Shown: in pieces, positions 33,915 through 47,303 of the stretch
Position numbering within the stretch: position 1 is the stretch's first letter
How the letters are laid out: the number at the start of each line of letters is the position of its first letter
Assembly: GCF_020696975.1 (NCBI RefSeq)
Contig: NZ_JAJGBK010000022.1
Location: forward strand, 62,001-126,000
From: Methanoculleus sp.
GTDB lineage: Archaea; Halobacteriota; Methanomicrobia; Methanomicrobiales; Methanoculleaceae
DNA length: 64,000 nucleotides
Direction: 5' to 3'
Translations under genes and position numbers: made by a program
The notes under the pieces: model-generated
The model's database searches: none
The model's input: the letters and a program-made list of their open reading frames with translations, nothing else
What the model was told of the DNA's origin: nothing

Positions 33915-33988
33915 GGGCTCGTGGTCTAGCTGGTTATGACGTCGCCTTCACACGGCGGAGGTCTCGAGTTCGAATCTCGACGAGCCCA
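33915..33988 (+). tRNA. tRNA-Val (anticodon CAC), integration site
   Basis: A 74-nt cloverleaf two bases after tRNA-Gly. The acceptor is GGGCTCG/CGAGCCC with discriminator A. The anticodon loop TTCACAC gives CAC. The T arm is TCGAGTTCGAATCTCGA. No CCA is encoded. Its 3' part (from 33936) is repeated exactly at 44778-44831, so this tRNA gene served as the attachment site of the element that follows; the copy here remains a full, probably functional tRNA. Confidence 0.95.
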
Positions 33989-34189
33989 TTTTACTTCGTT
34001 CTTTTCGGAAATTAAGACCAATTTTTGGTGCGTTACCTTTCGAAGTTCGAATACCGCTTTATCGAGTAAGCGGGACGCATTAACGCCGATTTTCTTCAAA
34101 TACTCGTAGTTCTCAGGATCTATTGTGAGATTCAACGGTTTTCTAACTCGCCGCACATCGCTTATTTTATGTTTTTCTCCTTTATTCAT
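33926..34189 (-). CDS. Small ribbon-helix-helix-like protein reading into the tRNA gene
   Basis: About 87 residues from the ATG at 34189; an upstream ATG at 34213 is possible. The central part, KPLNLTIDPENYEYLKKIG followed by VNASRLLDKAVFEL, has the strand-helix-helix pattern of MetJ/Arc-type proteins and of small archaeal antitoxin-like regulators. The C-terminal ~18 residues (WARRDSNSRPPPCEGDVITS) are encoded by the tRNA-Val gene itself in antisense; such a tail is usual for genes abutting a tRNA attachment site. It may regulate excision or plasmid copy number of the element. The tail sequence carries no functional signal beyond this. Confidence 0.6.
   Translation of the reverse strand: MNKGEKHKISDVRRVRKPLNLTIDPENYEYLKKIGVNASRLLDKAVFELRKVTHQKLVLISEKNEVKWARRDSNSRPPPCEGDVITS
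33936..33989 (+). repeat. attL: left copy of 54-bp direct repeat
   Basis: It covers the tRNA-Val from the end of the D-arm through the discriminator base plus one T. It is identical to 44778-44831 (starts ATGACGTCGCC, ends GACGAGCCCAT). The base before it differs (T versus C), marking the edge of identity. Confidence 0.9.
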
Positions 34190-34499
34190 GCTCTTTTTCT
34201 CCTGTGCGCACATATACACGGATATGCGCACACATTCAGGGATCCTAACTCTCTTCGTAGTGGGTCTTAAAGGGGTGGCAACCAAAAACGGGGGCGTTTG
34301 AGAGGGGCGCCGCGAAGTTTCGGACGGCCAAAAGTGTGCGGACACTTTCACATCCCCCGCTCAACAGTTAATACCTTTTGAAGCACATTGATTCAAATCG
34401 ATAATTATTTGAAGCGCATACGAAACAAATGATGATAAATACCATTATGTGAGAGGTTGCACCGTTTGAACTTCGGCGCAGAATTGGTAAGGGTGCTAT
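34190..34499. other. A/T-rich intergenic region at the left end of the element
   Basis: No gene is seen. It is A/T-rich from about 34365 with TATA-like stretches (AAATACCATTATG) and should contain divergent promoters for the RHH-like gene and the 351-aa gene. The composition change from the tRNA side is sharp. Confidence 0.4.
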
Positions 34500-35555
34500 A
34501 TGGACAAAATTGCGAAAGATATCAATGTCTACATCAAGTCCCTTGACAAAGCACACCCAAAAATCTCTGTTAATATTCTTGTAAGCAATATCCAAGCAAT
34601 TCAGAACTTGATGTATCTTATCGGGGATTATCTTGAAGGACATAAGGCCCGGAATGCAGGAGATTACCCAAAATCTGTGAAAGATAACTGTGAACTGGTT
34701 ATTACAGGAGTGAAGCAAGGAAGTTTAGAAATTCAGATGAGGCCGTCTCAGACTCAGCAAGCTCTTCCTATACCAGACCTCGAAGGCACATATGGAGAGC
34801 GGGCAATTAAGATGGCCAATTGTGCTCTAGGCATAGCATCTAGTGAACATCTCGTATATCCTAGAGTGCTTGACCTATTTGGAGGAGATGAGCATCGGGC
34901 ATATCGCTCGCTCCAAGAACTAGAAAGCATTTGGCCAGACGAAGATTCACCGTATCAGATTGAAGTTGGTTTCGGAGAAAAAGAACGTGTTGAACTAAAA
35001 CCCGAAAGAAAACCGATAATTAGAGACGCCTTAGTGAAACCACCAGAACCTTCGGCAAAAACTGTATCCGGTAGACTAGTAGAAATTAGCGTGGAGAGAA
35101 AACGCCAATTTGCTGTAGATACACCAGATGGCCGGTATATCTGCAAATACCCCCGTGAACTTGAAGAATATGTTATAAAAAGAATCAAGAATCTTGTTAG
35201 TGTAAGTGGAGTTCTTGAAGGGAGGAGAAAGGTAATCAATATTGAGAGTGAGATGGCCTTTAAACCCTTAAAGTATCTCCAATTCTCCCAGGTAAAATTC
35301 GACAAAAAGACTGTCAAAGAATTAGCGAAGCCGATAAATCTTGAAGTCGATTTTGACGATGAGGAATATATCCTTTATAATAACGATTTTAACTTGTTGG
35401 TTACAAGTAAGAATTTAAAAGAAGGCATGGATGAGATTAACAGAGAGTTTGTGTTATTATGGTCTGATTACGTCGAAGAAGACATTAACAACCTATCCGA
35501 AGGGGGGATCCAGTTCCGGGAAAAGTTACTGTCACTGTTTAATGGGGCGATTTAA
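34500..35555 (+). CDS. Uncharacterised 351-aa protein paired with a HicA-like gene
   Basis: A 351-residue soluble protein in A/T-rich DNA. The N-terminal ~90 residues (KISVNILVSNIQAIQNLMYLI, ELVITGVKQGSLEIQM) resemble a domain I recall from many bacterial proteins of unknown role. The middle (KTVSGRLVEISVERKRQFAV, TPDGRYICKYPRELEEYV, LVSVSGVLEGRRKVINIES) has the strand pattern of a small OB- or SH3-like barrel. The C-terminal ~90 residues are acidic and helical (FVLLWSDYVEEDINNLSEG). No enzyme motif is visible. Its stop is immediately followed by the start of a HicA-like gene, so both are cotranscribed. A toxin-antitoxin-like or defence function is a guess from this pairing and the element context. 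Confidence 0.75.
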   Translation: MDKIAKDINVYIKSLDKAHPKISVNILVSNIQAIQNLMYLIGDYLEGHKARNAGDYPKSVKDNCELVITGVKQGSLEIQMRPSQTQQALPIPDLEGTYGERAIKMANCALGIASSEHLVYPRVLDLFGGDEHRAYRSLQELESIWPDEDSPYQIEVGFGEKERVELKPERKPIIRDALVKPPEPSAKTVSGRLVEISVERKRQFAVDTPDGRYICKYPRELEEYVIKRIKNLVSVSGVLEGRRKVINIESEMAFKPLKYLQFSQVKFDKKTVKELAKPINLEVDFDDEEYILYNNDFNLLVTSKNLKEGMDEINREFVLLWSDYVEEDINNLSEGGIQFREKLLSLFNGAI

Positions 35556-35837
35556 TTGGCAACGCGAAACAATAAGAAAGTTCTCAAGGCCCTGACTAAA
35601 AAGGGGTTCGAATTGCACAATTCAGACCATATAAAATTAACACTTTATCATAACGGAAAAAAGACCGGGCTAACCACTTGGGTTAGCCATGGAAAGCAGG
35701 ATCTTGGCGACAGAATGATAGGCATTATGGCAGATCAGTTACGGTTAGAACGAAGAGAGTTTCAAGACCTGGTTGACTGCCATATATCCGCAAGTGGTTT
35801 AATACAATTATATCACGAAAAGGGAGTCGTTATCTAA
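35556..35837 (+). CDS. HicA-like (YcfA-fold) small protein
   Basis: A 93-residue protein. It has the order of the HicA dsRBD-like fold: KVLKALTKKGFELHNSDHIKLTLYHNGKKT (helix, then the Ser-Asp-His-Ile-Lys strand), a TWVSHG segment with a His, then GIMADQLRLERREFQDLVDC. In HicA toxins a His in the first strand is catalytic, and the SDH here could serve. The C-terminal extension (HISASGLIQLYHEKG) is not part of the minimal toxin. The start is a TTG directly after the TAA of the gene before; no other start fits. No HicB homologue is present, so the 351-aa neighbour may be its partner. Confidence 0.65.
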   Translation: MATRNNKKVLKALTKKGFELHNSDHIKLTLYHNGKKTGLTTWVSHGKQDLGDRMIGIMADQLRLERREFQDLVDCHISASGLIQLYHEKGVVI

Positions 35838-35880
35838 ATATTTCCGATCCCTGATACCACCTATTTTCCCTTACTTCTCT

Positions 35881-36138
35881 TCACGGAAAACCCGGGAGAA
35901 GCTCGCAGTCCGCCACCCCTGCGGCCACTACCTCTTCCACACACTCCTTTATCTCGAATGTTGTGTAGCGCAGAGTCACTTCCGCGACCTGAGATACGGC
36001 ACCCCACGCCGGAGCATCCCGGCAACAGTGCGCTTTTATGTCGTAGACGAACTGCCCGTCCGAGTGGATACCAGTGACGTCCGCATATTTGAGGGGGTAG
36101 GTCGAGAGTTCCTCCGTAGAATCAGCGCATGTCTTCAT
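35881..36138 (-). CDS. Hypothetical 85-aa protein
   Basis: An 85-residue frame from the ATG at 36138. It contains five cysteines (KTC, HCC, KEC, DCE), and the sequence FVYDIKAHCCRDAPAWGAVSQVAEVTLRYTTFEIKE has the look of a real folded protein. There is no strong ribosome site and no family I recognise. It lies between the HicA-like gene and the hairpin tract, converging with the former. It could be a genuine small gene or a fragment of a longer one. Confidence 0.4.
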   Translation of the reverse strand: MKTCADSTEELSTYPLKYADVTGIHSDGQFVYDIKAHCCRDAPAWGAVSQVAEVTLRYTTFEIKECVEEVVAAGVADCELLPGFP

Positions 36139-36149
36139 GACGCGCAATC

Positions 36150-36400
36150 TGGAGGAGCATTCTCCCTTTTTCTCTGGAGAAGAGAACTGAATTCTTCTCT
36201 TTTTCTCTTTGTGCTATGGAGAATTCTCCATAGTTCTCCTGGAGAAGAGAGTTCTCGTCTCCTATTTCTCCCAGGAGAAGCGGACATATAATCTCTTTTT
36301 CGCCGTTTTTCCTCCGGAAAAACCGATGGAGAAAACCTGGAGAAAAACAGGAGAAGACTGGAGAGAATGCAGGAGACATAGGAGAATCACCGTCAGACTA
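36150..36400. repeat. Hairpin-dense tract of GGAGAA/TTCTCC repeats
   Basis: About 250 bases containing more than ten copies of GGAGAA or its complement TTCTCC, many placed as inverted pairs. The clearest is CTATGGAGAATTCTCCATAG at 36214-36233, a perfect 20-bp palindrome, directly followed by TTCTCC-T-GGAGAA (36234-36246). 36300-36390 then has six or more copies in one orientation. It sits between the 85-aa gene and the 3' end of hsdS. A GGAGAA-rich stretch also lies at 45959-46065, beyond the right end of the element. The function is unknown: iterons, protein-binding array or structured RNA. Confidence 0.7.
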
Positions 36401-37727
36401 GCGTGGACTGAGTCCCTCTTCTCCCCGTCTTCTCCTTCTTCTCAGAGTGGATACGCTCAAGCAGGACCGATGCCGGCTCATACTCGCGCCCCTCCCGCCG
36501 GGCGAGTCCCGCCTCGGTGGGGACCAGCCGGCCGGAGAATGCCTGGGCGAGGATGGATTGCCGCATCGTCTCGGTCTTTGCGCGTGCCGCGGCGACTTCG
36601 GCCTCGATCCGGTCGGTGAGGGCGAGGAGGGCCTCGACACGGCGGACGATCTCGTTCTGTTCGGGGAGGGGAGGGAGAGATAACTGCATCTCACTGATTA
36701 TTTTCTTATTTAAAGCGGGTTGCTCCCCACCTCTACCTGCCTTACGATGGTCTTCGTATTTTGATAACGACCAGTACCAAAGAAAATCGGAAGTAATCTT
36801 CTGGATATCTGGAACTATTCCAGCAACATTTTGATTTGTACATGCCTCGATTTCGAGATAAGCAGACTGCCCTCGCGTTTTTCCCTCTCCAATCATGGCG
36901 ATGAGAATAGTGCCCTTTGGGTATATTTTGGCGTTTGAATTTTCTAAACCCAGTTCAGTAATATGTTCTCTTGTGGAGTGTATGTGGTTATTCGCAACCT
37001 CCCCCGATGAAACCCACGGTATTGTACCATTCCAAAACTGAGGCTTCTTCCTTGAAGGGGTACCGCCAACTTTGACTTGAGCAATATCAACTACCTTACA
37101 CTCCAACCAATCTTGTGGACTCCCTGCCCGCCAATCCTCCGTCAGCCGCCCATCACACGCGGCGGCGAGCACCGCCTGCCGGAACTGCTTGAGGATGCCC
37201 GGCACGCGCTCAAGTCGGGCGTTCGCGGCGTCCAGCCGTGCAAACAGCGCCTCGATGGCGGCGACGATGCGGTGCTGTTCGGCGAGAGGGGGGAGGAGCA
37301 ACTCAATACTCTCCAAATGACCTTTGTTTATTGCTGTAAAGGTTGAGCCCGTCCCCCACAACGCTATTTCCGGTTCCTTATACCTCAGGTTATATAGAAT
37401 GTAGTTTGTGGGTACCCCCGCCAAAGGGGTAAGTCCTGCCAAACCCCTCCCTATCGTGCAGACCCGATCGGCCACATTTGTTGGTCCAACTGGGGCACGG
37501 ACGGAAATTAGAATAGCACCTGGTTTCACGATCTTTTTGGGCTCGGTACAGTATACTCGTATAGTTGGATGATAGTCTGTAAAGTCAGCCTTCCCTTGAA
37601 AAAAAGGAAGACCTATTCCCTCCTCATTGTAAGAACTACCAGGCGGAGATTGCCCCATGCAAATATCAGCAACTTGGGGTAAAGTCACCCATTCCCACCC
37701 CTCCGGCACCTCACTCCTCTCTGGCAT
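36393..37727 (-). CDS. hsdS: Type I restriction-modification specificity subunit
   Basis: A 444-residue protein with two target-recognition domains (about 10-150 and 215-370), each followed by a conserved coiled coil: LLPPLAEQHRIVAAIEALFARLD near 155 and LSLPPLPEQNEIVRRVEALLALTD near 350. The end ILAQAFSGRLVPTEAG is family-typical. Both halves are intact, so the subunit should recognise a bipartite DNA site. The recognition-domain parts are more A/T-rich than the conserved parts, the usual sign of TRD exchange. The 5' end overlaps hsdM by 17 bases. The last codons run into the GGAGAA tract. Confidence 0.93.
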   Translation of the reverse strand: MPERSEVPEGWEWVTLPQVADICMGQSPPGSSYNEEGIGLPFFQGKADFTDYHPTIRVYCTEPKKIVKPGAILISVRAPVGPTNVADRVCTIGRGLAGLTPLAGVPTNYILYNLRYKEPEIALWGTGSTFTAINKGHLESIELLLPPLAEQHRIVAAIEALFARLDAANARLERVPGILKQFRQAVLAAACDGRLTEDWRAGSPQDWLECKVVDIAQVKVGGTPSRKKPQFWNGTIPWVSSGEVANNHIHSTREHITELGLENSNAKIYPKGTILIAMIGEGKTRGQSAYLEIEACTNQNVAGIVPDIQKITSDFLWYWSLSKYEDHRKAGRGGEQPALNKKIISEMQLSLPPLPEQNEIVRRVEALLALTDRIEAEVAAARAKTETMRQSILAQAFSGRLVPTEAGLARREGREYEPASVLLERIHSEKKEKTGRRGTQSTLV

Positions 37728-39135
37728 ATCCGTTCCCCATCATCTCAAGGATCGCATTCAGCTCCTCCACCGCGGCCTCAAGTTCGTTGATGGCTTCGGC
37801 GGCCAGTTCCTCCGGGGCGGGCAGATCGTCGCCGTCCGAGAGCGACTCGTCCCGCAGCCACTTCAGCGAGTCGATCTTGTAGTCCTGCTCCTTGAGTTCG
37901 GTGATGTGGAACGATCGCCAGCGGTCTTCCGCCGAGTCCTCGGGGCGGCGCGGGGACCTCCCGTTCGGATCCTCGCCGTAGCAGCGCTCGAACTCCGCAA
38001 AGTGCTCCTTCGTGAGGGGGCGGTCCTTCTTCGTGATCCCCGGCACGTTCGTCCGTCCGTCGTAGACCCAGGTGTGATCGGTCGGAATGCCCTTCGTGAA
38101 GAAGATCACGTTCGTCTTCGTCCCCGGCGAGTAGGGGGTGAACGTCCCGTCCGGCAACCGGAGGACCGTATGGAGGTCGCAGTCCTCGCAGAGCACCTTG
38201 AAGATCTCTCCGGCCTGGTCCGCGAAGAGGACGTTGTCCGGCACCACGACCGCCGCACGGCCGCCGGGCTTTAAGATCGTCATCACATGCTGGATGAAGT
38301 TGAGCTGCTTGTTGCTCGTCTCGATCACGAAGTCTTCCCGGTGCGGGGACTGATTCGCGCCTTTGGTGCCGAAAGGAGGATTGGTGAGCACCACATCGAA
38401 CCGCCGGAAGTCGGGCACCTCGTAGATCGAGTCGCCCAGCCGGATCTCCGGCTCGATACCGTGCAGGTAGAGGTTCATCAGCGCCAGCCGCCGCGGGCGC
38501 TCAACCAGTTCCTGCCCGAAGTAGGTGCCTTTCCTGATGCGCCGCGCAAGGTCACGGTCAAGCGCCCCGCCGCCGGTCTGGACTTTCAGCCACTCATAGG
38601 CGCAGACCAGGAACCCACCTGTCCCACACGCGGGATCGGTGATGGTGAACTCGCGAGCCCTGCGGGGATCGGGCTTCATGCACCGCACGATCGTCTGGAT
38701 GAGGATACGCGGGGTGAAGTACTGCCCGGCACCCTTCTTCCCCTCGCTCGCGGCCTTCTCGAGCAGCCCTTCAAACGCGGCAGCCTTCACGTCGACATCG
38801 AGCCCGGTCCACTCGGTCTCGTCGATCACGCCGATCAGTTTCTTGAGGTTCACCGGGTTGTGGAAACGCGAGAGCGCACCGGCGAAGATGTCGCCGAGCA
38901 GCCCATCGGCCTTGCCGAGGGTGCGGAGGAGATCGGCATAGTGCTCGGTGAGGTCGGTCCCGGACTGCTCTTTCAGTGAGGTCCAATCACAGCCCTCCGG
39001 GAGGTCGACGCCGCGCTCGTCGGCCATCTTGAGAAAGAGCAGATAGGTGATCTGTTCGATGTAGTCACCATAGTCGATCCCTTCGTGCCTCAGCGTATGG
39101 CAGAATCCCCAGAGTTTTTGTACGACGTCACTCAT
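37711..39135 (-). CDS. hsdM: Type I restriction-modification methyltransferase subunit
   Basis: A 474-residue N6-adenine methyltransferase. An HsdM N-terminal helical domain (KLWGFCHTLRHEGIDYGDYIEQITYLLFLKMADE) is followed by the AdoMet motif I ITDPACGTGGFLV and catalytic motif IV VLTNPPFGTKG. The length fits the family. It modifies the recognition site selected by HsdS. Its start overlaps the hsdR stop (ATGA), so all three subunits are translated from one message. Confidence 0.95.
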   Translation of the reverse strand: MSDVVQKLWGFCHTLRHEGIDYGDYIEQITYLLFLKMADERGVDLPEGCDWTSLKEQSGTDLTEHYADLLRTLGKADGLLGDIFAGALSRFHNPVNLKKLIGVIDETEWTGLDVDVKAAAFEGLLEKAASEGKKGAGQYFTPRILIQTIVRCMKPDPRRAREFTITDPACGTGGFLVCAYEWLKVQTGGGALDRDLARRIRKGTYFGQELVERPRRLALMNLYLHGIEPEIRLGDSIYEVPDFRRFDVVLTNPPFGTKGANQSPHREDFVIETSNKQLNFIQHVMTILKPGGRAAVVVPDNVLFADQAGEIFKVLCEDCDLHTVLRLPDGTFTPYSPGTKTNVIFFTKGIPTDHTWVYDGRTNVPGITKKDRPLTKEHFAEFERCYGEDPNGRSPRRPEDSAEDRWRSFHITELKEQDYKIDSLKWLRDESLSDGDDLPAPEELAAEAINELEAAVEELNAILEMMGNGYAREE

Positions 39136-41804
39136 GCCGCAATTGCCTCATTCAATTCCTGAAGTAGTCTTGAGAGCCGGTTTCCAAAAACGCGGTTTGC
39201 CCGTCCCCAGCCGCCATGATCAGCAAAGACGGGGATGATCTCAAAATCTTCCTCATTTATTGAGAGGTTCTGGATTAAATGGGCACGGATGCGATCCAGC
39301 CACGCGGTCTGCTCTGCGGTGAAGGTTTTTCCGTCCAGTATCGTTGCAAACGCCCGATCAATCCGCTCTTCCGCGGTGAGCAGTTCCTCGTCCTCGCGGG
39401 CGGCGTGCTTCACCATCGAGATGATGTCAACGAGCGCCTTCTGGTAATGCACCTGGTGCGCCCGCTGCAGGTTCTCGACGGTGAACCGCTGCGGTGTCGC
39501 CGTGAGTTTCTGCTTCAGTTCGGCAAGCGCATCTGTACTCCACTCCTGCGGGCGGTCGAGGAGGATCTGGATGGCCTCGATCTTATCGGGGTTCTCCTGG
39601 ACGAACCGGGCAAAGAGGGTGAGATAGTCTGCCGGTTTGTACTCGTGCCCGGCCGAATCGCGCACCACCCAGGTCGATGTCACCTCGTCCTGCGTGTGGT
39701 AGTCGATGAGGAACGTCCGGGGAGGCCGGGGATAGTTCACCAGGAGGTTCTGGAAGTCGGGGTCCCGGAGGATCTCCATCGTCCCGGTGAAATCCTCTTC
39801 CAGCCGCCGTTGCAGGGAGACGGCAAACTGCTTGAGATCCCCTCTATCGACGAACTTCCGGAAGAGGTCACGCGCCTCCCCCGACATCTCTTTGTCAATC
39901 CGGTTCAGGTGCTTGACGAGCACGCGGATGTTGTAGGCGCGATCCCGGTTGTTCCAGATATCATCGATGATCTTCGCGATCGGCTTTGCCTCACGTTGCG
40001 GTGGTTCGGCCGTGATGCCGGTTGCCTGCCGGAAGTACTCGATCAGCGTCCCGCCGAAGCAGTCAAAGACAGTAAAGTGCGATTTGTCCGGGTAGTGCTC
40101 CCCTTTGCGCGTGCCTCTTCCCATCATCTGCTCAAAGAGGATACGGGACTTCACCGGCCGGAGAAAGACGATGTATTCGAGGTCGGGGATATCCACTCCG
40201 GTCGAGAGGAGATCGACGCTAACGACGACCCCCGGCAGTTTCCGGTTCCGGAACTCCCGGATTCTCTGCAGGGGGCGATCGACCTTGCCGGTGATCTTCT
40301 GGACGAACGCATCTCCCCGCCCGAAGACCTCGCGGGCGGCATCGACGAGTTGATCTGCATGGGAGATGTGCGGGATGTCCTGGACGGCGAAGATCAGGGT
40401 CTTCGGGAAGCGGCCATACTGCCGCTCGTGCTCGTCGGCATAGCGCTTGATCTCTTCAAGGATCTTATGGTTGGAGTCAATGGACGTGATACTCCGCTCG
40501 ATCTGCTCTGAAGAGTACTCACGCTCGTCTTCGAGGATATCAAGCGTCTTCTCTCCGGTTTCCGGGTCGACAACATCGACGGCCTCCCCCTCTTTCAGGA
40601 AGATCCCCTGCATCCAGACACCTGACTCGATAGTGACGAGATCGTAATCGACCAGATAGCCTTCCCGGACAGCCCGCTCGTAGGGATACTCGTACACCTT
40701 GTGCCTGAAGTAGGCCATCGTATGCGCGGCAGGCGTCGCGGTGAGCCCGATCTTTATCGCATCGAAGTGATCGAGCGTGTTGCGCCAGATCGACATCTCC
40801 TGCGCGGTATACCCGCGGTGGCACTCGTCGGCGATAATGAGGTCGAAGGCGTGGATCGGGATATCCATCTTCTCGGCGTCTTCCTCCACTTCCTCCGTGC
40901 AGGGGAAGGCGGCAGCCTTGCCGAAGAGGTTGATGGTCATCCGCTGGATGGTTGAGACGTACACGAAGGCGTGGCCGGGCCGGGGGTCGGTGAGGTAGGT
41001 GTTCGGCAGCACCGTGACATCAAAGGGGTCATCGTCGTCGAGGTCTCCACGCTGGAACTGCTGGCTGTAGACCTCGTAGGTCTTATCGAACTTCAATCCC
41101 TGCTCGGTGTCAAACGAAGCGAATGCGCGCACCGCCTGCGCCGCGAGAGCCCGCCGGTCGACGAGGAAGAGGACGCGCTTTGCCGCACCGGCTTTCATCA
41201 GGCGGTAGATGAGGTTGACCATCGTGAATGTCTTCCCCGTCCCGGTCGCCATCGCAACCAGCATCTCCCGCTGCCGTTGTGCGATCGCATTTCCGATAGC
41301 GTTGCAGGCTTCGCGCTGATAGGGACGCATCCGGGGATTATCGGGGACCGTGAAGAACTGCGAGCATTCCCGATCGAGATCGGCCTGCAAGCGGTCCAGC
41401 AGGGCATCCGGTGAATGGAAGGCGGCGATCTCCCGCGAACGGTTCAGGGGATGCCGTGCATCGTGATACCAGATCACCTCACCGTTGGTTGCGTAGAGGA
41501 ACGGGACACGGATGCCATCGAAGTTGAACGGAGTATCGGTGATCCCGCGGGCATACCGCTCGGCCTGCACAAGAACACTCTGCGGCCCCAGCGAGACTTT
41601 TTTCGCCTCGATGATGCCGAGGATTGCTCCGTTGACATAGAGGGCGTAATCGGCAGGGCCGTTCTCGGTCGGATACTCCTCGATGGAACACCGATCGTAT
41701 GCACTGAGCGAGCGTCCTTCTCTGTAGGGAACGACATCCCAGCCGGCCGCCCGTAATTTAGGATCGATCCTCGATTTACGGGTCAGATATTCGTTTTCAC
41801 TCAT
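39132..41804 (-). CDS. hsdR: Type I restriction endonuclease subunit R
   Basis: An 890-residue protein from the ATG at 41804; a TTG 30 bases upstream is less likely. The N-terminal nuclease domain has the PD-(D/E)xK core (ADYALYVNGAILGIIEAKK). Two RecA-like helicase domains follow: Walker A MATGTGKTFT, motif II IADECHRGY, motif III GLTATPAA, motif VI QMMGRGTRKG. A C-terminal HsdM-binding region ends the protein. All key residues appear intact, so the system should be active. The order R-M-S, with R first on the minus strand, is common in archaea. Confidence 0.95.
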   Translation of the reverse strand: MSENEYLTRKSRIDPKLRAAGWDVVPYREGRSLSAYDRCSIEEYPTENGPADYALYVNGAILGIIEAKKVSLGPQSVLVQAERYARGITDTPFNFDGIRVPFLYATNGEVIWYHDARHPLNRSREIAAFHSPDALLDRLQADLDRECSQFFTVPDNPRMRPYQREACNAIGNAIAQRQREMLVAMATGTGKTFTMVNLIYRLMKAGAAKRVLFLVDRRALAAQAVRAFASFDTEQGLKFDKTYEVYSQQFQRGDLDDDDPFDVTVLPNTYLTDPRPGHAFVYVSTIQRMTINLFGKAAAFPCTEEVEEDAEKMDIPIHAFDLIIADECHRGYTAQEMSIWRNTLDHFDAIKIGLTATPAAHTMAYFRHKVYEYPYERAVREGYLVDYDLVTIESGVWMQGIFLKEGEAVDVVDPETGEKTLDILEDEREYSSEQIERSITSIDSNHKILEEIKRYADEHERQYGRFPKTLIFAVQDIPHISHADQLVDAAREVFGRGDAFVQKITGKVDRPLQRIREFRNRKLPGVVVSVDLLSTGVDIPDLEYIVFLRPVKSRILFEQMMGRGTRKGEHYPDKSHFTVFDCFGGTLIEYFRQATGITAEPPQREAKPIAKIIDDIWNNRDRAYNIRVLVKHLNRIDKEMSGEARDLFRKFVDRGDLKQFAVSLQRRLEEDFTGTMEILRDPDFQNLLVNYPRPPRTFLIDYHTQDEVTSTWVVRDSAGHEYKPADYLTLFARFVQENPDKIEAIQILLDRPQEWSTDALAELKQKLTATPQRFTVENLQRAHQVHYQKALVDIISMVKHAAREDEELLTAEERIDRAFATILDGKTFTAEQTAWLDRIRAHLIQNLSINEEDFEIIPVFADHGGWGRANRVFGNRLSRLLQELNEAIAA

Positions 41805-42055
41805 CGATGAGGCACGCAGAGGGTGGTAATCCAATAAAATGCTAATCCGTTTTATCTTGCAGTCTTATTTATCGATAGATTAACTTTTTGATATCTATTT
41901 CTAATATGCACGACTAAAATCAACCCATATCCAAGTTTAAAAGAGACGATTGCTTCAGATTGCTCACCTGCAGTTCTGCAATGCCTAACAACAAGATCAA
42001 ATACCAAATTTCGACTGAAGTAAACCAGGCAATCATCGTTGCTAACTTCTAATAT

Positions 42056-43120
42056 TTACTGCATATCCACGCTAAAAACAGGATTAGTTGTTAAAATACT
42101 TTCAAATTGACTTAAAAGGTATTGAGATATATTCCAATCAATACAGTGGGGACAGCAAGTCACGATGAATTGGCTAGAACGAGTGCTACACCCGATGGAG
42201 GTCTGACAAAATTTTACATCTAGTTTTTTAAAGCAGTTCCCAAAGATTAAATGAGGCCATTTGGATAACAGATTAGGATTATAATTAATAAGAGAGAGTG
42301 CCATCACCCGTAATTTGAAGTTTTCAGGATCATATTTGAATCTGAATTGCATCCGATCTACCTCATAGACCTCTGGATCATACCAAGAAAACCTATTTAA
42401 GATCAGGTCTGGCTCCAAGATATTAACTGAAAAAGCCTTTTTTGAATTTATCAATAGTTTATCCTCTTTGATATCAAATTCCCCTGGGTAAATGGATGGG
42501 ATAGCAGATTGGACATCGTGTATTATATCAGATTCCACGGATTTTATGTCATATATCTTATATGGGTGCTCTCCATCGATTGGCTCCATCCTACTATGAT
42601 AAACACAAAATAACCGTTTATGCTCTTCCCGATAATCTTCCGAACTGGTTACCAACTTTAGAGAGTTGAATTGAATTAAAGGAAAATTCTCAACTAATTT
42701 ATTCAATCCATCTTGTTTCGCCAAGTATGCGTAAACTTTAGAAATCTTTATTTCAGGCCGGAATTCATTGAGGGTAGAGAGAGTAATATCTACTTCCTTA
42801 CCCTCACCTATCGCATCAGTAACTAAGACATTCTCTTTCTCGGGATCATTTTCAGAGTAACAATTAATACGGATAGTTTTAGAATTATAGAGCAGTTTAA
42901 TTGAATTTAAACCACTCACGTTTCTTGAGGGGTCAAAATATGGGCGAAACAAATTAAAGCCTTTTCTTTCTAAGACGTACACATTTGGATGTTGCGGTGT
43001 AATTTCCGCGAGAACAAATTCTTCCAACTGATTTTCGATACGATGAGCAATATCAACAGGATGTGCATCGAGGGATTTTAAAAACTCTGATTCGATATTG
43101 ATCGCCGGAAGATCAGACAT
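42056..43120 (-). CDS. Phosphoribosyltransferase-like protein with C-terminal Cys cluster
   Basis: A 354-residue protein in strongly A/T-rich DNA. Residues 98-110 (VLVTDAIGEGKEV) match the shape of the PRPP-binding loop of type I phosphoribosyltransferases (four hydrophobics, an acidic residue, then a Gly-rich turn), with Gly-Glu-Gly-Lys instead of the usual Thr-Thr/Gly-Gly-Thr. The preceding strand (SIKLLYNS) and following strand (ISKVYAYLA) fit such a core. The C-terminal half is unlike any enzyme I know and ends in cysteines at 296, 305, 311, 322, 323 and 326 (CQTSIGC, TCCPHC), a likely metal site. It is divergent from the wHTH-HD gene pair. Possible roles are nucleotide metabolism or a defence effector; both are inference. 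Confidence 0.55.
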   Translation of the reverse strand: MSDLPAINIESEFLKSLDAHPVDIAHRIENQLEEFVLAEITPQHPNVYVLERKGFNLFRPYFDPSRNVSGLNSIKLLYNSKTIRINCYSENDPEKENVLVTDAIGEGKEVDITLSTLNEFRPEIKISKVYAYLAKQDGLNKLVENFPLIQFNSLKLVTSSEDYREEHKRLFCVYHSRMEPIDGEHPYKIYDIKSVESDIIHDVQSAIPSIYPGEFDIKEDKLLINSKKAFSVNILEPDLILNRFSWYDPEVYEVDRMQFRFKYDPENFKLRVMALSLINYNPNLLSKWPHLIFGNCFKKLDVKFCQTSIGCSTRSSQFIVTCCPHCIDWNISQYLLSQFESILTTNPVFSVDMQ

Positions 43121-43341
43121 TCTAGAATTACCCCAAGAATTATCGCAGAAGTATCAATTCGACAACATTTAAACCTCTTGATTCTATATAATATGTCAAC
43201 TTTAGGACACAATACCCAAAAGATAAATATGATACAAATAAACTGATATAGACTCCCAAAAAATGAGAGTTATGATCAAACAAAAAGAATTATATAAATC
43301 TACGTCGAAGTCAGCATATCTGAAGCCTGGAGGAGGACGTT
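43121..43341. promoter_or_regulatory. Divergent A/T-rich promoter region between PRTase-like and wHTH genes
   Basis: About 220 A/T-rich bases between two divergent genes, with TATA-like stretches (TTCTATATAATATG near 43183 and AAAGAATTATATAAATC near 43280). GGAGGACG precedes the ATG at 43342. A winged-helix protein is the first product to the right, so this is the natural place for its operator. Confidence 0.5.
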
Positions 43342-43659
43342 ATGGGTGCAGAGGTAAAAGGTTCGGAGGTAAAAAGTCCTCTATCAAGTGAGTTCAAAGT
43401 GGCAACGGAGATCTATCATTGCCAGAACAACAACGAAGTTATATGGTACGGAAAATTAGTTGATAGACTAGCCGGACAAGTCAGTAAGAACACGATATCA
43501 AATGCTATAGATACCCTATTTGACTGGGGCATTATAAAAGCAGAATACGGAGAGACAGAAAATGGCAGAGCAGGCAGACTCTTAATGATAAGCAACGAGG
43601 CAAAACCCTTAGTTAAAGAATTATACGAGAAATATTGGAAACCGATAAACTACCCCTAA
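43342..43659 (+). CDS. Winged-helix DNA-binding protein
   Basis: A 105-residue protein with a strong ribosome site (GGAGGA). Residues ~17-95 form a winged helix: FKVATEIYHCQ, VIWYGKLVDRLAGQVSKNTISNAIDTLFDWGIIKAEYG (recognition helix SKNTISNAIDTLFDWG), then the wing NGRAGRLLMISNEA. It belongs broadly to the archaeal ArsR/PadR-like single-domain regulators. The HD-domain gene begins 19 bases after its stop, so the two are cotranscribed. It probably controls the module through the divergent promoter at 43121-43341. Confidence 0.75.
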   Translation: MGAEVKGSEVKSPLSSEFKVATEIYHCQNNNEVIWYGKLVDRLAGQVSKNTISNAIDTLFDWGIIKAEYGETENGRAGRLLMISNEAKPLVKELYEKYWKPINYP

Positions 43660-43678
43660 CACGGCGATTCAGACCAAT

Positions 43679-44437
43679 ATGTTTCCCTATGATCCAATAT
43701 ATACTGGGATCTCAGATATCCAATCCGATTCGCTCAAGATGGTCGCGATATATGCAGAACAATTTTTAAGATTTATGCCACGAAACATCCAAAATTTTCC
43801 ATCACACGGGTTGGATCACTCAATAAACATCATTAAACTGATAAACGAATTTACGGGAAATTGGAACCTCTCAGTAACAGAAGACGAGAAATATATACTA
43901 TATTTATCTGCATGGCTCCACGATATTGGGTGTATTTGCGATAGAGAACATCATAACGAAGTATCGTATCAAATATTGCTTCAAGATGAGAGTACATGTA
44001 ATATAATCAATAACGTTAGTGCTAACGCACTATACAATCTAAAATTTACCATCAACTCTCATTCTTCATCCTACGATATTGAAGAAGTCCCTAAAAATTT
44101 AAATGGTGTCCGTCTGCAGTTGATTTGTGCAATTTTTAGAATACTTGATGCTTGTGAGATTAGTTGCACCAAATGTCCGAAAGCAGTGTTTGACTTAATT
44201 GGCCCCACATTAAAAGAGGATCCAACAGCTTACTCATTTTGGGATGGGCATATGAAAATACAGTTAGTAACATATAAAGAACCGGATATTATAATACTAA
44301 CAAGAGGATCTAATGAGAATACTGAAAAGATCATAAATAGGCTAAAAAAAGAAATTGATTCGGTAAAATCAATATTTCAAGAAAATGGAGTGTGTATCCC
44401 ACAGATAAGTGTAATAGATCACTCGCTCCATCAATAG
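43679..44437 (+). CDS. HD-domain phosphohydrolase-like protein
   Basis: A 252-residue protein. The HD signature residues are visible: His47 in HGLDHSINII, the His81-Asp82 doublet in SAWLHDIGC, downstream His91/His92 that may be accessory ligands, and Asp157 in FRILDACEIS. This is the H...HD...D metal site of nucleotide and phosphodiester hydrolases. The C-terminal ~85 residues (HMKIQLVTYKEPDIIILTRG; INRLKKEIDSVKSIF) may be a sensing domain. It is cotranscribed with the winged-helix protein and divergent from the PRTase-like gene, which hints at a shared nucleotide substrate. dNTP hydrolysis is one option; nothing in the sequence proves it. Confidence 0.78.
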   Translation: MFPYDPIYTGISDIQSDSLKMVAIYAEQFLRFMPRNIQNFPSHGLDHSINIIKLINEFTGNWNLSVTEDEKYILYLSAWLHDIGCICDREHHNEVSYQILLQDESTCNIINNVSANALYNLKFTINSHSSSYDIEEVPKNLNGVRLQLICAIFRILDACEISCTKCPKAVFDLIGPTLKEDPTAYSFWDGHMKIQLVTYKEPDIIILTRGSNENTEKIINRLKKEIDSVKSIFQENGVCIPQISVIDHSLHQ

Positions 44438-44777
44438 TTTCTAGAATATGCTGATATCGCTGGATATTAGGTCGATCATAATACTCTCAGCTCGTTGCTC
44501 CATACCTCGACCATCAAAATTTTGGCAATGCTGTTCTCTGCATCTTTACAAAGTTACGATTAATAGCTGAGATGTAATCCTTTATTAGTAGGTTATAGAG
44601 CAATCCACATTTGGAGCAGCGAATCAACTGATATTAAAACCAATCCCTATGTGACCTATAGAACCCAATAAAGGCGGGGTATCACCATAACTTGTTAACC
44701 TATTCTCACTCTCCCGCAAGGTTCTTGAAAAATCATCGGAGCGCGTTTGGGGGCCGAAACCGGAAACGGGCCGCGTC
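44438..44777. other. A/T-rich right end of the element, no gene seen
   Basis: About 340 bases without a supportable gene between the HD gene and attR. The composition changes to GC-rich near 44735, just before the repeat. Confidence 0.4.
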
Positions 44778-44831
44778 ATGACGTCGCCTTCACACGGCGG
44801 AGGTCTCGAGTTCGAATCTCGACGAGCCCAT
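44778..44831 (+). repeat. attR: right copy of 54-bp direct repeat (tRNA-Val 3' fragment)
   Basis: An exact copy of 33936-33989. It lacks the tRNA 5' half, so it is not a functional tRNA; it marks the original chromosomal 3' end displaced by integration. Confidence 0.9.
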
Positions 44832-44931
44832 GATTCTCCCTTTTTCTGCAAAATTAAGCCCGGACGGCCTGGCGGCATAGACCGAAGGGAAGAGTAACCC
44901 TTTTTATACAATAGGCGGGTTTCGCCTCCCG

Positions 44932-45762
44932 ATGAGACTCCGGGCCCGGAGTAACAGCACCTCAAAAAGGTCGCCGTTCCTCTTCTTCATACTGGTCTAC
45001 ACTCTATCCATTCCGCTCTGGGCGCTCAACGCCATCTACCCGATAAAACTTCCCGTGGATAACCTTCCCGTGACGGACATTGCGGCCACGTTCACCCCAT
45101 TGATAGCGGCATCCATCCTTGTCTACCGGGAAGGAGGGCTTTTCGGGGTAAAGAGTCTCCTGAAGAGAGCCTTTGATTATAAGAGGATCACGAAGAAAGT
45201 CTGGTATCTTCCCATCATCGTCCTGATGCCGTTCATCTACGTGCTGACCTACGGGATAATGCGTCTCCTCGGGCTGCCGGTCCCGACTGTCTGGAACCCG
45301 CCCCTTGCTACACCGCTCCTCTTTATCGCGCTCTTCTTTGCCGCTGCAGGTGAAGAACTCGGCTATACAGGATACGTCACCGATCCAATGCAGGCCCGGT
45401 ACACCGCACTGACGGCCAGCCTCATCATCGGGTTTATCCATGCAGTATGGCATGTCCCGTCGGCGTTCTCAATCGGCTACACCCTGGGATTGTATATCTG
45501 GGGAGTGATAGTACTCGGCGTTACGTTCCGGGTTCTGACGGTCTGGATCTATAACAACACCGGAAAAAGCGTTTTTGCAGCCATACTCTTTCATGCCGTG
45601 ACCAATACCGGAAGGAGCATATTCCCCGGTAGCCGTTCAACGTTCGAACTCTACGACGGGGCTCTCGGCTACGGGCTCATCGCTATCGCGACTGTGATCG
45701 TGGTGTACTTATGGGGATCTAAGACATTGGCGCGATTCAGGTATGCCCGGAGAGCGGATTAG
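44932..45762 (+). CDS. CPBP-family intramembrane metalloprotease
   Basis: A 276-residue polytopic membrane protein (about seven helices). The CPBP/Rce1-like motifs are EELGYTG (Glu-Glu), HAVWH (His) and FHAVTN (His-Asn near the C-terminus), placing the metal site within the membrane. Members cleave prenylated proteins, peptides or act in bacteriocin self-immunity; the archaeal role is unknown. It resembles the protein at 61571-62332 in several segments (FDYKRI.KKVWY, EE.GY.GY..DP.Q.R, LTVWIYNNTG), so the two are paralogues. It lies just right of attR. Confidence 0.88.
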   Translation: MRLRARSNSTSKRSPFLFFILVYTLSIPLWALNAIYPIKLPVDNLPVTDIAATFTPLIAASILVYREGGLFGVKSLLKRAFDYKRITKKVWYLPIIVLMPFIYVLTYGIMRLLGLPVPTVWNPPLATPLLFIALFFAAAGEELGYTGYVTDPMQARYTALTASLIIGFIHAVWHVPSAFSIGYTLGLYIWGVIVLGVTFRVLTVWIYNNTGKSVFAAILFHAVTNTGRSIFPGSRSTFELYDGALGYGLIAIATVIVVYLWGSKTLARFRYARRAD

Positions 45763-46322: not shown

Positions 46323-47303
46323 TCATGAAATCAAGGCGACAATCTGATTACCAATTCGCGTGAGTGCTGCGTTCTCCGTATTTATTGTACTAGTTATCTG
46401 GTTCAGTTCACCCGCTAAGGAAGAGACACGTATGGCTTGTGCCGCCATCTGGGACTGGTATGATTGTGACGCTACTGAGACTGGCTGTCCTGCATAGTAG
46501 GTGTTCCAATAATTGACCATATCACTATAATACGCAGATTCACGGTTGTACTCAGCCGCTTTACCGTCATATTGGTCATATAAGGAATTGCAGTATGAGA
46601 TCTTATTGTTATAATCGCGGATTAGGTTCAGGTACTCCTTGAAATCCCTTGGGGTGTCAAAGCAAACTGCCCTGTAGTAGTTACTATTCTCATCACCGTA
46701 GACGAGGTAACCACCTGTGGTTTCTAATGCCACCCACTGGTTGGGGTCAACTTCAGCCAGCACCCATGCATGGTTCCAATCGGACCACTTCGAATCGGCA
46801 TGCTCAATATTCCCAACAGCAATTTTAGCGTTTATCCCCGCTGTCTCCACTATGTTCCAAACATCTATTGTCATATCTGCGCAAACAAAGAGATTAACCA
46901 TACTGTAGGTATGCGTATCATGGTAGTTTTCAACGATTTGTTCAAGCCGCTTCACTTTACTGCCACTTGCGTATGCTCCTGCCCTCACTGTGTCGGCCGC
47001 ACTAGTAGGGACATCGGATACAGTGTTCTTGGATAAATCCGCAGAAACGATTACCGATTCTCCAGATTTAACCGTTACCTCGTCTTTCCACACGAGGTGT
47101 TCAGGATGTCTTAACTCGATTGAGTGGGTGCCCGCGGGGACACTACTGATGCAACAGGGTGTTGAACCACGATATTCGGAATTAAAGTAGACTTCTGCGC
47201 CACTCGGTTCGGATGAGACTGTGATCTGCGAAAAGCTAAGGTTGGTACATCCACAAGAGGCAACACAGACTAGCAGAACCACTACGCAGACTATAGATCT
47301 CAC
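46323..47303 (-). CDS. PEGA plus transglutaminase-like surface lipoprotein
   Basis: A 326-residue exported protein. A signal peptide ends in a lipobox-like VASC (Cys17). A PEGA domain follows (about 27-93: ITVSSEPSGAEVYFNSEYRGSTPC, TPCCISSVPAGTHSIELRHPEH), a beta-sandwich named for its PEGA-like motif and thought to bind surface material. The central region carries a transglutaminase-like site: Cys in VNLFVCADMTIDVW, His in WNHAWVLAEVDPNQW, acidic Glu in VALETTGGYL. The C-terminus is helical and rich in Tyr-Asn (DYNNKI, EYNRES), probably a coiled coil. It is a distant architectural relative of the lipoprotein at 5122-6225. Confidence 0.8.
   Translation of the reverse strand: MRSIVCVVVLLVCVASCGCTNLSFSQITVSSEPSGAEVYFNSEYRGSTPCCISSVPAGTHSIELRHPEHLVWKDEVTVKSGESVIVSADLSKNTVSDVPTSAADTVRAGAYASGSKVKRLEQIVENYHDTHTYSMVNLFVCADMTIDVWNIVETAGINAKIAVGNIEHADSKWSDWNHAWVLAEVDPNQWVALETTGGYLVYGDENSNYYRAVCFDTPRDFKEYLNLIRDYNNKISYCNSLYDQYDGKAAEYNRESAYYSDMVNYWNTYYAGQPVSVASQSYQSQMAAQAIRVSSLAGELNQITSTINTENAALTRIGNQIVALIS

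What the first reader, a model, noticed from the sequence alone, without database searches (positions are those of the whole stretch)
33936..44831. Integrated element in tRNA-Val with defence cargo but no recognisable integrase
A perfect 54-bp repeat of the tRNA-Val 3' half bounds a 10.9-kb segment. Between the copies are type I restriction-modification, a HicA-like pair and a PRTase/wHTH/HD module, yet no recombinase. It may be a defence island mobilised in trans, a decayed element, or one using an unknown mover. The base composition changes sharply at both ends and again around hsdRMS.
Basis: partly seen in the sequence, partly recalled or inferred. Interest (0 to 1): 0.8.

Follow-up and report, generated by a model that had tools for sequence, protein, structure and literature searches.

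The report
Archaeal island keeping half an integrase
A 10.8-kb block of defence genes sits in a tRNA gene of a methane-producing archaeon (nearest named relatives are Methanoculleus), and its seemingly absent integrase is explained by a known archaeal type whose gene is cut in two on integration: the front half is still there and the catalytic half has been lost.

Summary
A perfect 54-bp copy of the tRNA-Val(CAC) 3' half lies at 33936-33989 and 44778-44831, the segment between carries type I R-M and other cargo, a relative (G035) has the empty site, and no complete recombinase was found in it. The puzzle is largely solved. A small ribbon-helix-helix (RHH) ORF (33926-34189, minus) runs antisense into the tRNA, and relatives show it is the N-terminal half, int(N), of an SSV/pT26-2-type 'suicidal' integrase. 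One relative has the whole gene (RHH, middle stretch, PF16795). Seven others have int(N) at the tRNA and a PF16795 int(C) 2-17 kb away; in five of the seven the halves share the tRNA-coded stretch in one reading frame. In the window the core is in the same frame at both ends and an int(C) linker stub survives inside the right repeat, but the catalytic part is gone; PF16795 gave 0 hits in the host assembly. I read this as a decayed element, excisable only in trans if at all. Such RHH genes recur across one archaeal order: 84 of 97 distinct copies are tRNA-adjacent; of 56 with 8 kb or more fetched, 7 have an intact int(C). Some stand-alone copies show purifying selection (omega about 0.3); one set shows none.

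The parts
33915..33988 (+). tRNA-Val(CAC), intact attachment target
   Evidence: ARAGORN
33936..33989 (+). attL core, 54 bp, includes the anticodon
33926..34189 (-). int(N): RHH domain (CcdA/RHH_3-like) plus tRNA-coded tail WARRDSNSRPPPCEGDVITS
34500..35555 (+). 351-aa protein, no family above threshold; 91% identical relative in G020, also followed by the HicA-like gene
35556..35837 (+). HicA-like small protein (sub-threshold PF07927); 94% identical relative in G020
36393..37727 (-). HsdS, type I specificity subunit; a fragment of its 3' end (88% over 284 bp) lies near the same tRNA in G033
37711..39135 (-). HsdM, type I methyltransferase
39132..41834 (-). HsdR, type I restriction subunit
42056..43120 (-). 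354-aa PRTase-like protein by motif only (LVTDAIGEGKE)
   Evidence: no family or significant PDB match
43342..43659 (+). small winged-helix-like protein, conserved beside HD and the 354-aa gene in G192 and G187
   Evidence: family hits weak and below cut-offs
43679..44437 (+). HD-CE domain protein (PF24391)
44624..44777 (-). int(C) stub: linker similar to the G009:C3 integrase (DNA similarity 44711-44776), then unrelated sequence and a stop; catalytic domain absent
44778..44831 (+). attR core, identical to attL and in the same frame relative to the integrase ORF
44832..45762 (+). chromosomal right flank with a gene I read as CPBP-like (not scanned), joined directly to tRNA-Val in G035 (empty site)

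Best explanation
The segment entered the chromosome as a circle by recombination between an attP inside its own integrase gene and the 3' half of tRNA-Val(CAC), catalysed by an SSV/pT26-2-type suicidal tyrosine integrase with an N-terminal RHH domain. Integration cut the gene into int(N), the RHH ORF that ends in the tRNA, and int(C), which started at the other repeat. The int(C) catalytic part was later deleted, leaving only the core and about 20-30 linker codons. The island now stays in place as cargo (type I R-M, HicA-like gene, PRTase-like/wHTH/HD-CE cassette). It could leave only if a related complete integrase arrives and acts on the two intact cores. Shown: the repeat, tRNA, empty site, RHH gene running into the tRNA, same reading frame at both cores, linker similarity, no PF16795 hit in the host assembly, and intact and split relatives. 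Inferred: the deletion event, the original activity, and present immobility.
For: A 434-codon open frame in G019 with the RHH profile at its start (E 5e-9) and PF16795 (E 1.6e-21) at its end. Split pairs, int(N) at a tRNA and int(C) on the same strand of the same contig: 7 with an intact int(C) frame (G036, G037, G051, G058, G064, G066, G085) and a decayed one in G027; a second att copy was seen at the int(C) end in the 3 whose whole span was fetched (G036, G051, G066). In G036 this is at the same tRNA-Val(CAC). In 5 of the 7 the two halves share the tRNA-coded stretch in frame. Window post-core linker versus the G009:C3 linker: score 54, reached by 0 of 2000 shuffles and 0 of 40,900 other ORFs; DNA 79% over 68 bp, E 3e-7. 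Empty site in G035. RHH ORFs overlapping an antisense tRNA: 102 of 125, duplicates included; looser control set: 7 of 12,142 other ORFs have their C-terminus in one. The pT26-2 integrase, the closer of two plasmid hits (28% identity), reads as N-terminal segment, tRNA-like coded stretch, then PF16795.
Against: The catalytic domain is absent, so the assignment rests on halves. In G051 and G064 the two halves do not share a frame through the core, and the G064 PF16795 score is marginal (E 5e-4). I did not show that the middle stretch of the G019 frame is tRNA-coded. RHH assignment is marginal: CcdA E 9.5e-5 for the window ORF; 3 of 13 family members hit CcdA and 4 of 13 RHH_3 at E up to 0.1; the fold had low confidence and no significant Foldseek match. 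The RHH resemblance of pT26-2 is weak (PF07362 E 0.026). Linker shuffles that reach the real score against the other five relatives: L228 20, L212 35, L220 701, L221 774, L216 1374 of 2000, so only L205 is strong.
Confidence: 0.9

Rival explanations
1. Trans-mobilised satellite: loss of int(C) is not decay but a stable lifestyle in which the island keeps both cores (and int(N)) and is excised and inserted by integrases of other elements.
For: Both cores identical over 54 bp although the right copy is not a tRNA gene. Other bounded segments with no int(C) found: G110 9.1 kb, G007 4.2 kb, G036:C10 3.1 kb, G018 0.5 and 4.0 kb, G029 1.5 kb, G020:C40 0.1 kb. PF16795 integrases occur in 18 of 199 genomes of the order, two of them with two copies. 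Trans excision of related elements is reported (PMC8371274 section 30).
Against: No second copy of the whole island was seen: the 354-aa cargo gene is in 4 of 231 genomes, one of them this one, the others about 30% identical. Shared pieces found at related tRNA-Val loci are partial: the 351-aa/HicA-like pair in G020 beside a different int(N), and in G033 a 3' fragment of hsdS without hsdM or hsdR, which looks like decay. No PF16795 hit in the host assembly.
Confidence: 0.2
2. The RHH gene is an independent att-linked factor (for example directionality factor or repressor) of an element moved by an unknown recombinase.
For: RHH genes occur at many tRNAs with no integrase found in the fetched stretch; in L162 RHH and int are adjacent but separate ORFs; in two of seven pairs the halves are not in one frame; 28 ordinary integrase loci in the family carry no RHH of this kind.
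Against: Single open frame with RHH and PF16795 in G019; five in-frame pairs; window linker stub.
Confidence: 0.05
3. The second tRNA fragment arose by segmental duplication or chance, not integration.
For: None found.
Against: Empty site with left and right flanks joined at the core in G035, different composition inside, integrase halves at both ends.
Confidence: 0.01

Closest known systems
pT26-2 plasmid family suicidal integrase (Thermococcus sp. 26/2, GU056179)
   Same: N-terminal segment, tRNA-like coded stretch inside the gene, PF16795 catalytic domain; att sites averaging 58 nt at tRNA 3' ends, most often including the anticodon, in many tRNA genes (PMC6972569 section 13 read).
   Different: The intact relative is 28% identical to it over residues 162-427; the window has lost the catalytic half; cargo is defence-type. 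Plasmid core genes of pT26-2 were not searched for.
SSV1/SSV-type (type I) integrases
   Same: Gene split into int(N) and int(C) on integration; PF16795 (PMC8371274 passages).
   Different: I recall no RHH description for the SSV1 N-terminal region; not tested.
Archaeoglobus pleomorphic proviruses (BK065154, BK065155)
   Same: The two hits of the intact relative in the phage collection, 28% and 24% identity to annotated integrases.
   Different: In BK065154 an RHH protein is annotated as a separate gene beside the integrase.
ArcVen-P3 split integrase in A. veneficus (Makarova et al. 2014, PMC4158269)
   Same: 55-nt repeats at a tRNA gene, SSV-like integrase with an originally unannotated N-terminal moiety (passages).
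   Different: Both halves are present there; that tRNA is tRNA-Ser.

Membership tests
SSV/pT26-2-type (suicidal integrase) integrated elements | att core overlaps tRNA 3' half and leaves the tRNA intact | tested here: met
SSV/pT26-2-type (suicidal integrase) integrated elements | int(N) at one core, reading into the tRNA | tested here: met
   RHH ORF shares the A1 profile with the N-terminus of the G019 integrase frame
SSV/pT26-2-type (suicidal integrase) integrated elements | int(C) at the other core with PF16795 catalytic domain | tested here: not met
   Only core plus linker stub remain; PF16795 0 hits in the host assembly. It is therefore filed as a decayed derivative, not as a functional member.
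SSV/pT26-2-type (suicidal integrase) integrated elements | the two halves are in one frame through the core | tested here: met
   (both offsets 2 mod 3)
SSV/pT26-2-type (suicidal integrase) integrated elements | empty site in relatives | tested here: met
   G035 (L018, L043)
Ribbon-helix-helix (RHH) proteins | RHH family profile and fold | tested here: inconclusive
   PF07362 just above cut-off (23.1 vs 22.4 bits), RHH_3 below; predicted helices 25-34 and 38-52, mean pLDDT 62.7; Foldseek best hit CcdA at E 4.1; no significant PDB sequence match
Trans-mobilised (integrase-less) islands | excision by a recombinase supplied elsewhere | not testable with these tools
   no reads, no strain

The most novel reading that the evidence does not exclude
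The stand-alone RHH int(N) left at tRNA genes is not just a scar: after int(C) is lost it is retained by selection as a DNA-binding protein that acts on the tRNA att region, for example repressing or steering incoming integrases of the same kind, so one archaeal order carries a domesticated half-integrase family parked at its tRNA genes.
Probability: 0.2. Interest if true: 0.8.

Novelty: new member of a known kind. Interest (0 to 1): 0.45.

Why it matters
It shows how an island that looks integrase-free can be read: look for a small ORF running antisense into the tRNA. It places suicidal integrases in a methanogen order that is not named in the main texts of the review and the survey I searched, and offers many int(N)-only loci in which one can test whether half an integrase does anything on its own.

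Tried and rejected
PF00589 alone suggested an integrase-free class, because that search did not list the PF16795 enzymes; the reading was dropped. Xer recombinase as mover: not pursued, no evidence either way. PADLOC, NCBIfam and PHROGs gave nothing for the 351- and 354-aa proteins; Pfam gave only DUF2340 at E 0.076 for the first. A profile of the 354-aa protein and three relatives had one insignificant PDB match (E 2.6); its single-sequence fold failed (mean pLDDT 34). Viral contigs gave no RHH and no 354-aa relative. The first tally was biased because its query contained the tRNA-coded tail; profile A1, used, leaves the tail out. The first likelihood tests set kappa to a fixed value in the neutral model and were replaced by a coarse grid. 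Rows dropped: RHH hits above E 1e-4 and copies with identical domain DNA are not in the table; second att copies with score under 24 are not counted there (this drops G020:C69, whose second copy shows).
Full report
WHAT IS THERE. The repeat is real: 54 identical bases at 33936-33989 and 44778-44831, the first inside an intact tRNA-Val(CAC). The segment between holds HsdR, HsdM and HsdS, a 351-aa protein of no known family followed by a HicA-like gene, and a divergent cassette of a 354-aa PRTase-like protein, a small winged-helix-like protein and an HD-CE protein. No complete recombinase was found in it. The host assembly (33 contigs, 95% complete) has one PF00589 gene that I read as Xer-like, one PF00239 gene on another contig and no PF16795 hit. 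The empty site is in G035: left flank, tRNA-Val and right flank are contiguous, 91.7% identical over 1157 bp and 88.5% over 986 bp, with one core.

THE HIDDEN HALF. A minus-strand ORF (33926-34189) starts in the element and ends inside the tRNA, with the tail WARRDSNSRPPPCEGDVITS coded by the tRNA. Its N-terminal part matches CcdA (PF07362, just above cut-off) and RHH_3 (below). A profile of 13 such proteins without the tail hit 60 of 232 genomes of the class, all 60 in one order. Fetched neighbourhoods gave 97 distinct RHH domains at E up to 1e-4; 84 lie antisense next to a tRNA gene (gap -30 to 200 nt; 78 of them at most 72), at Val, Met, Thr, Ala, Asn, Lys, Ile, Phe, Arg, Gly and Glu tRNAs. 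The other 13 include copies beside tRNA fragments, copies at contig ends, the unsplit integrase of G019, and one (L139) beside an ordinary PF00589 integrase. Control: 7 of 12,142 other ORFs of 55-150 codons end in an antisense tRNA; of the RHH ORFs, duplicates included, 102 of 125 overlap one (the two criteria are not quite the same). The loci were chosen by RHH hits, and the first 20 large ones by a query that contained the tail.

WHY INT(N). G019 carries a 434-codon open frame, stop to stop, with the RHH domain, a middle stretch that I did not show to be tRNA-coded, and PF16795 (E 1.6e-21). PF16795 is in 18 of 199 genomes of the order. Seven RHH loci pair with an intact int(C) frame on the same strand and contig (distances 2.0 to 17.2 kb), one with a decayed one; the second att copy at the int(C) end was seen in the three fetched whole (G036, G051, G066). 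In 5 of the 7 the halves share the tRNA-coded stretch in frame; G051 and G064 do not. In the window the frame through the core is the same at both ends. Just inside the right repeat the window reads TRPVSGFGPQTRSDDFSRTLRESENR, like the linker of a decayed RHH-core-integrase in G009:C3 (score 54, reached by 0 of 2000 shuffles and 0 of 40,900 other ORFs; DNA 79% over 68 bp, E 3e-7; a weaker DNA match, 71% over 77 bp, in G010). Against five other relatives the real score was reached by 20, 35, 701, 774 and 1374 of 2000 shuffles, so that evidence rests mainly on one relative. The integrase domain that should follow is missing.

CLOSEST KNOWN. The intact relative hits the pT26-2 plasmid integrase (28%) and a Pyrococcus plasmid integrase (24%) among plasmids, and two Archaeoglobus pleomorphic viruses (28%, 24%) among phages. 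pT26-2 reads as an N-terminal segment with a sub-threshold CcdA match, GPGGIRTRDLRL (tRNA-like coding, my reading), then PF16795. Published work describes suicidal integrases as PF16795 enzymes split into int(N) and int(C), with att sites averaging 58 nt at tRNA 3' ends (PMC8371274, passages and section 30; PMC6972569, passages and section 13). 'Ribbon' and 'Methanomicrobi' do not occur in either main text. A search for 'SSV-type integrase' with 'ribbon-helix-helix' held no paper; a wider one had none on point beyond PMC8371274 among the eight listed of 20,463. That library is limited to open licences.

DECAY AND HISTORY. Bounded segments with a second att copy but no int(C) found also occur in G110 (9.1 kb, radical SAM genes), G007, G018, G036:C10, G020:C40 and, with a shorter fetched stretch, G029. 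Among the 56 tRNA-adjacent loci with at least 8 kb fetched on the element side, 3 show int(C) within the stretch and 8 a second att; four more of the 56 have int(C) at 15.7-16.6 kb, outside the stretch. At the same tRNA-Val, G033 carries a 3' fragment of a related hsdS (88% over 284 bp) with no hsdM, hsdR, intact RHH or int(C) hit in 17.9 kb, which looks like the remains of a similar island. Right of attR the window reads GLILQKKGESWARRD, like an int(N) tail, and G007 has a decayed RHH gene at that place, so an older insertion at this tRNA is likely (inference).

ARE INT(N) COPIES FUNCTIONAL? In six genomes a similar RHH gene lies at a tRNA-Val(CAC), with partly shared surroundings. No int(C) was found in the fetched stretches, but these are short for two: G028's contig ends 1.2 kb beyond, and that genome has a decayed PF16795 fragment on another contig; G013's stretch is 3.8 kb. 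A codon model prefers omega 0.3 over 1 (2dlnL 21.6); subgroups give 0.2 (18.8) and 0.3 (11.5); a tRNA-Met set gives 0.3 (5.0); a tRNA-Val(GAC) set gives no signal (coarse grid). Selection before the loss of int(C), or repeated insertion, could explain part of this. In the last set the shared surroundings make vertical descent clearest, and it shows no constraint, which argues against a general function.

TAXON. A scan of named genomes returned eight loci, from Methanoculleus and other Methanomicrobiales records, for example a 152,261-bp contig of Methanoculleus sp. FWC-SCC3, the length of G009:C27, so I take the window to be Methanoculleus or close (inference).

VERDICT. A decayed derivative of an SSV/pT26-2-type suicidal-integrase element with defence cargo. 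Ordinary in kind, useful in showing where the 'missing' integrase is.

Noticed in passing
window 42056-44437; L241, L242: The 354-aa PRTase-like/wHTH/HD-CE cassette recurs in the same divergent order in G192 and G187 (30%, 68-72% and 49% identity): a conserved, possibly defensive three-gene unit with a fast-evolving 354-aa member.
   Followed up: partly
L197 444-1745 (G019:C13, 45 kb contig): Unsplit RHH-PF16795 integrase frame with no tRNA found next to it in the 16.5 kb fetched; perhaps a free element.
   Followed up: no
L040 17217-18551: The 351-aa/HicA-like pair is 91-94% identical in G020 but beside a different int(N), so element ends may be mosaic.
   Followed up: no
L245 3106-3468 (G033:C69): Fragment of a related hsdS 1.1 kb from the same tRNA-Val, without hsdM or hsdR: possible remains of a similar island.
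   Followed up: partly
L180 6064-14965 (G110:C31): 9.1-kb segment between near-perfect tRNA-Ala(CGC) repeats with a cluster of radical SAM genes and no int(C) found.
   Followed up: partly
L036 1240-16013 (G013): A second tRNA-Val copy with its own RHH 14.7 kb downstream: possibly a newer insertion that displaced an older int(N) scar; carries a sub-threshold AbiJ_NTD4-like gene.
   Followed up: partly
G000:C31:3762-3872: A second, decayed int(N) at tRNA-Val(TAC) in the host genome.
   Followed up: no
window 46323-47303: Gene right of attR whose relative (78% DNA identity, PEGA domain) lies inside the bounded segment of G013, so the right flank may also be old island DNA.
   Followed up: no
window 35921-35947: 27 bp identical in 11 fetched loci (some from the same genome), probably part of a degraded gene.
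   Followed up: partly
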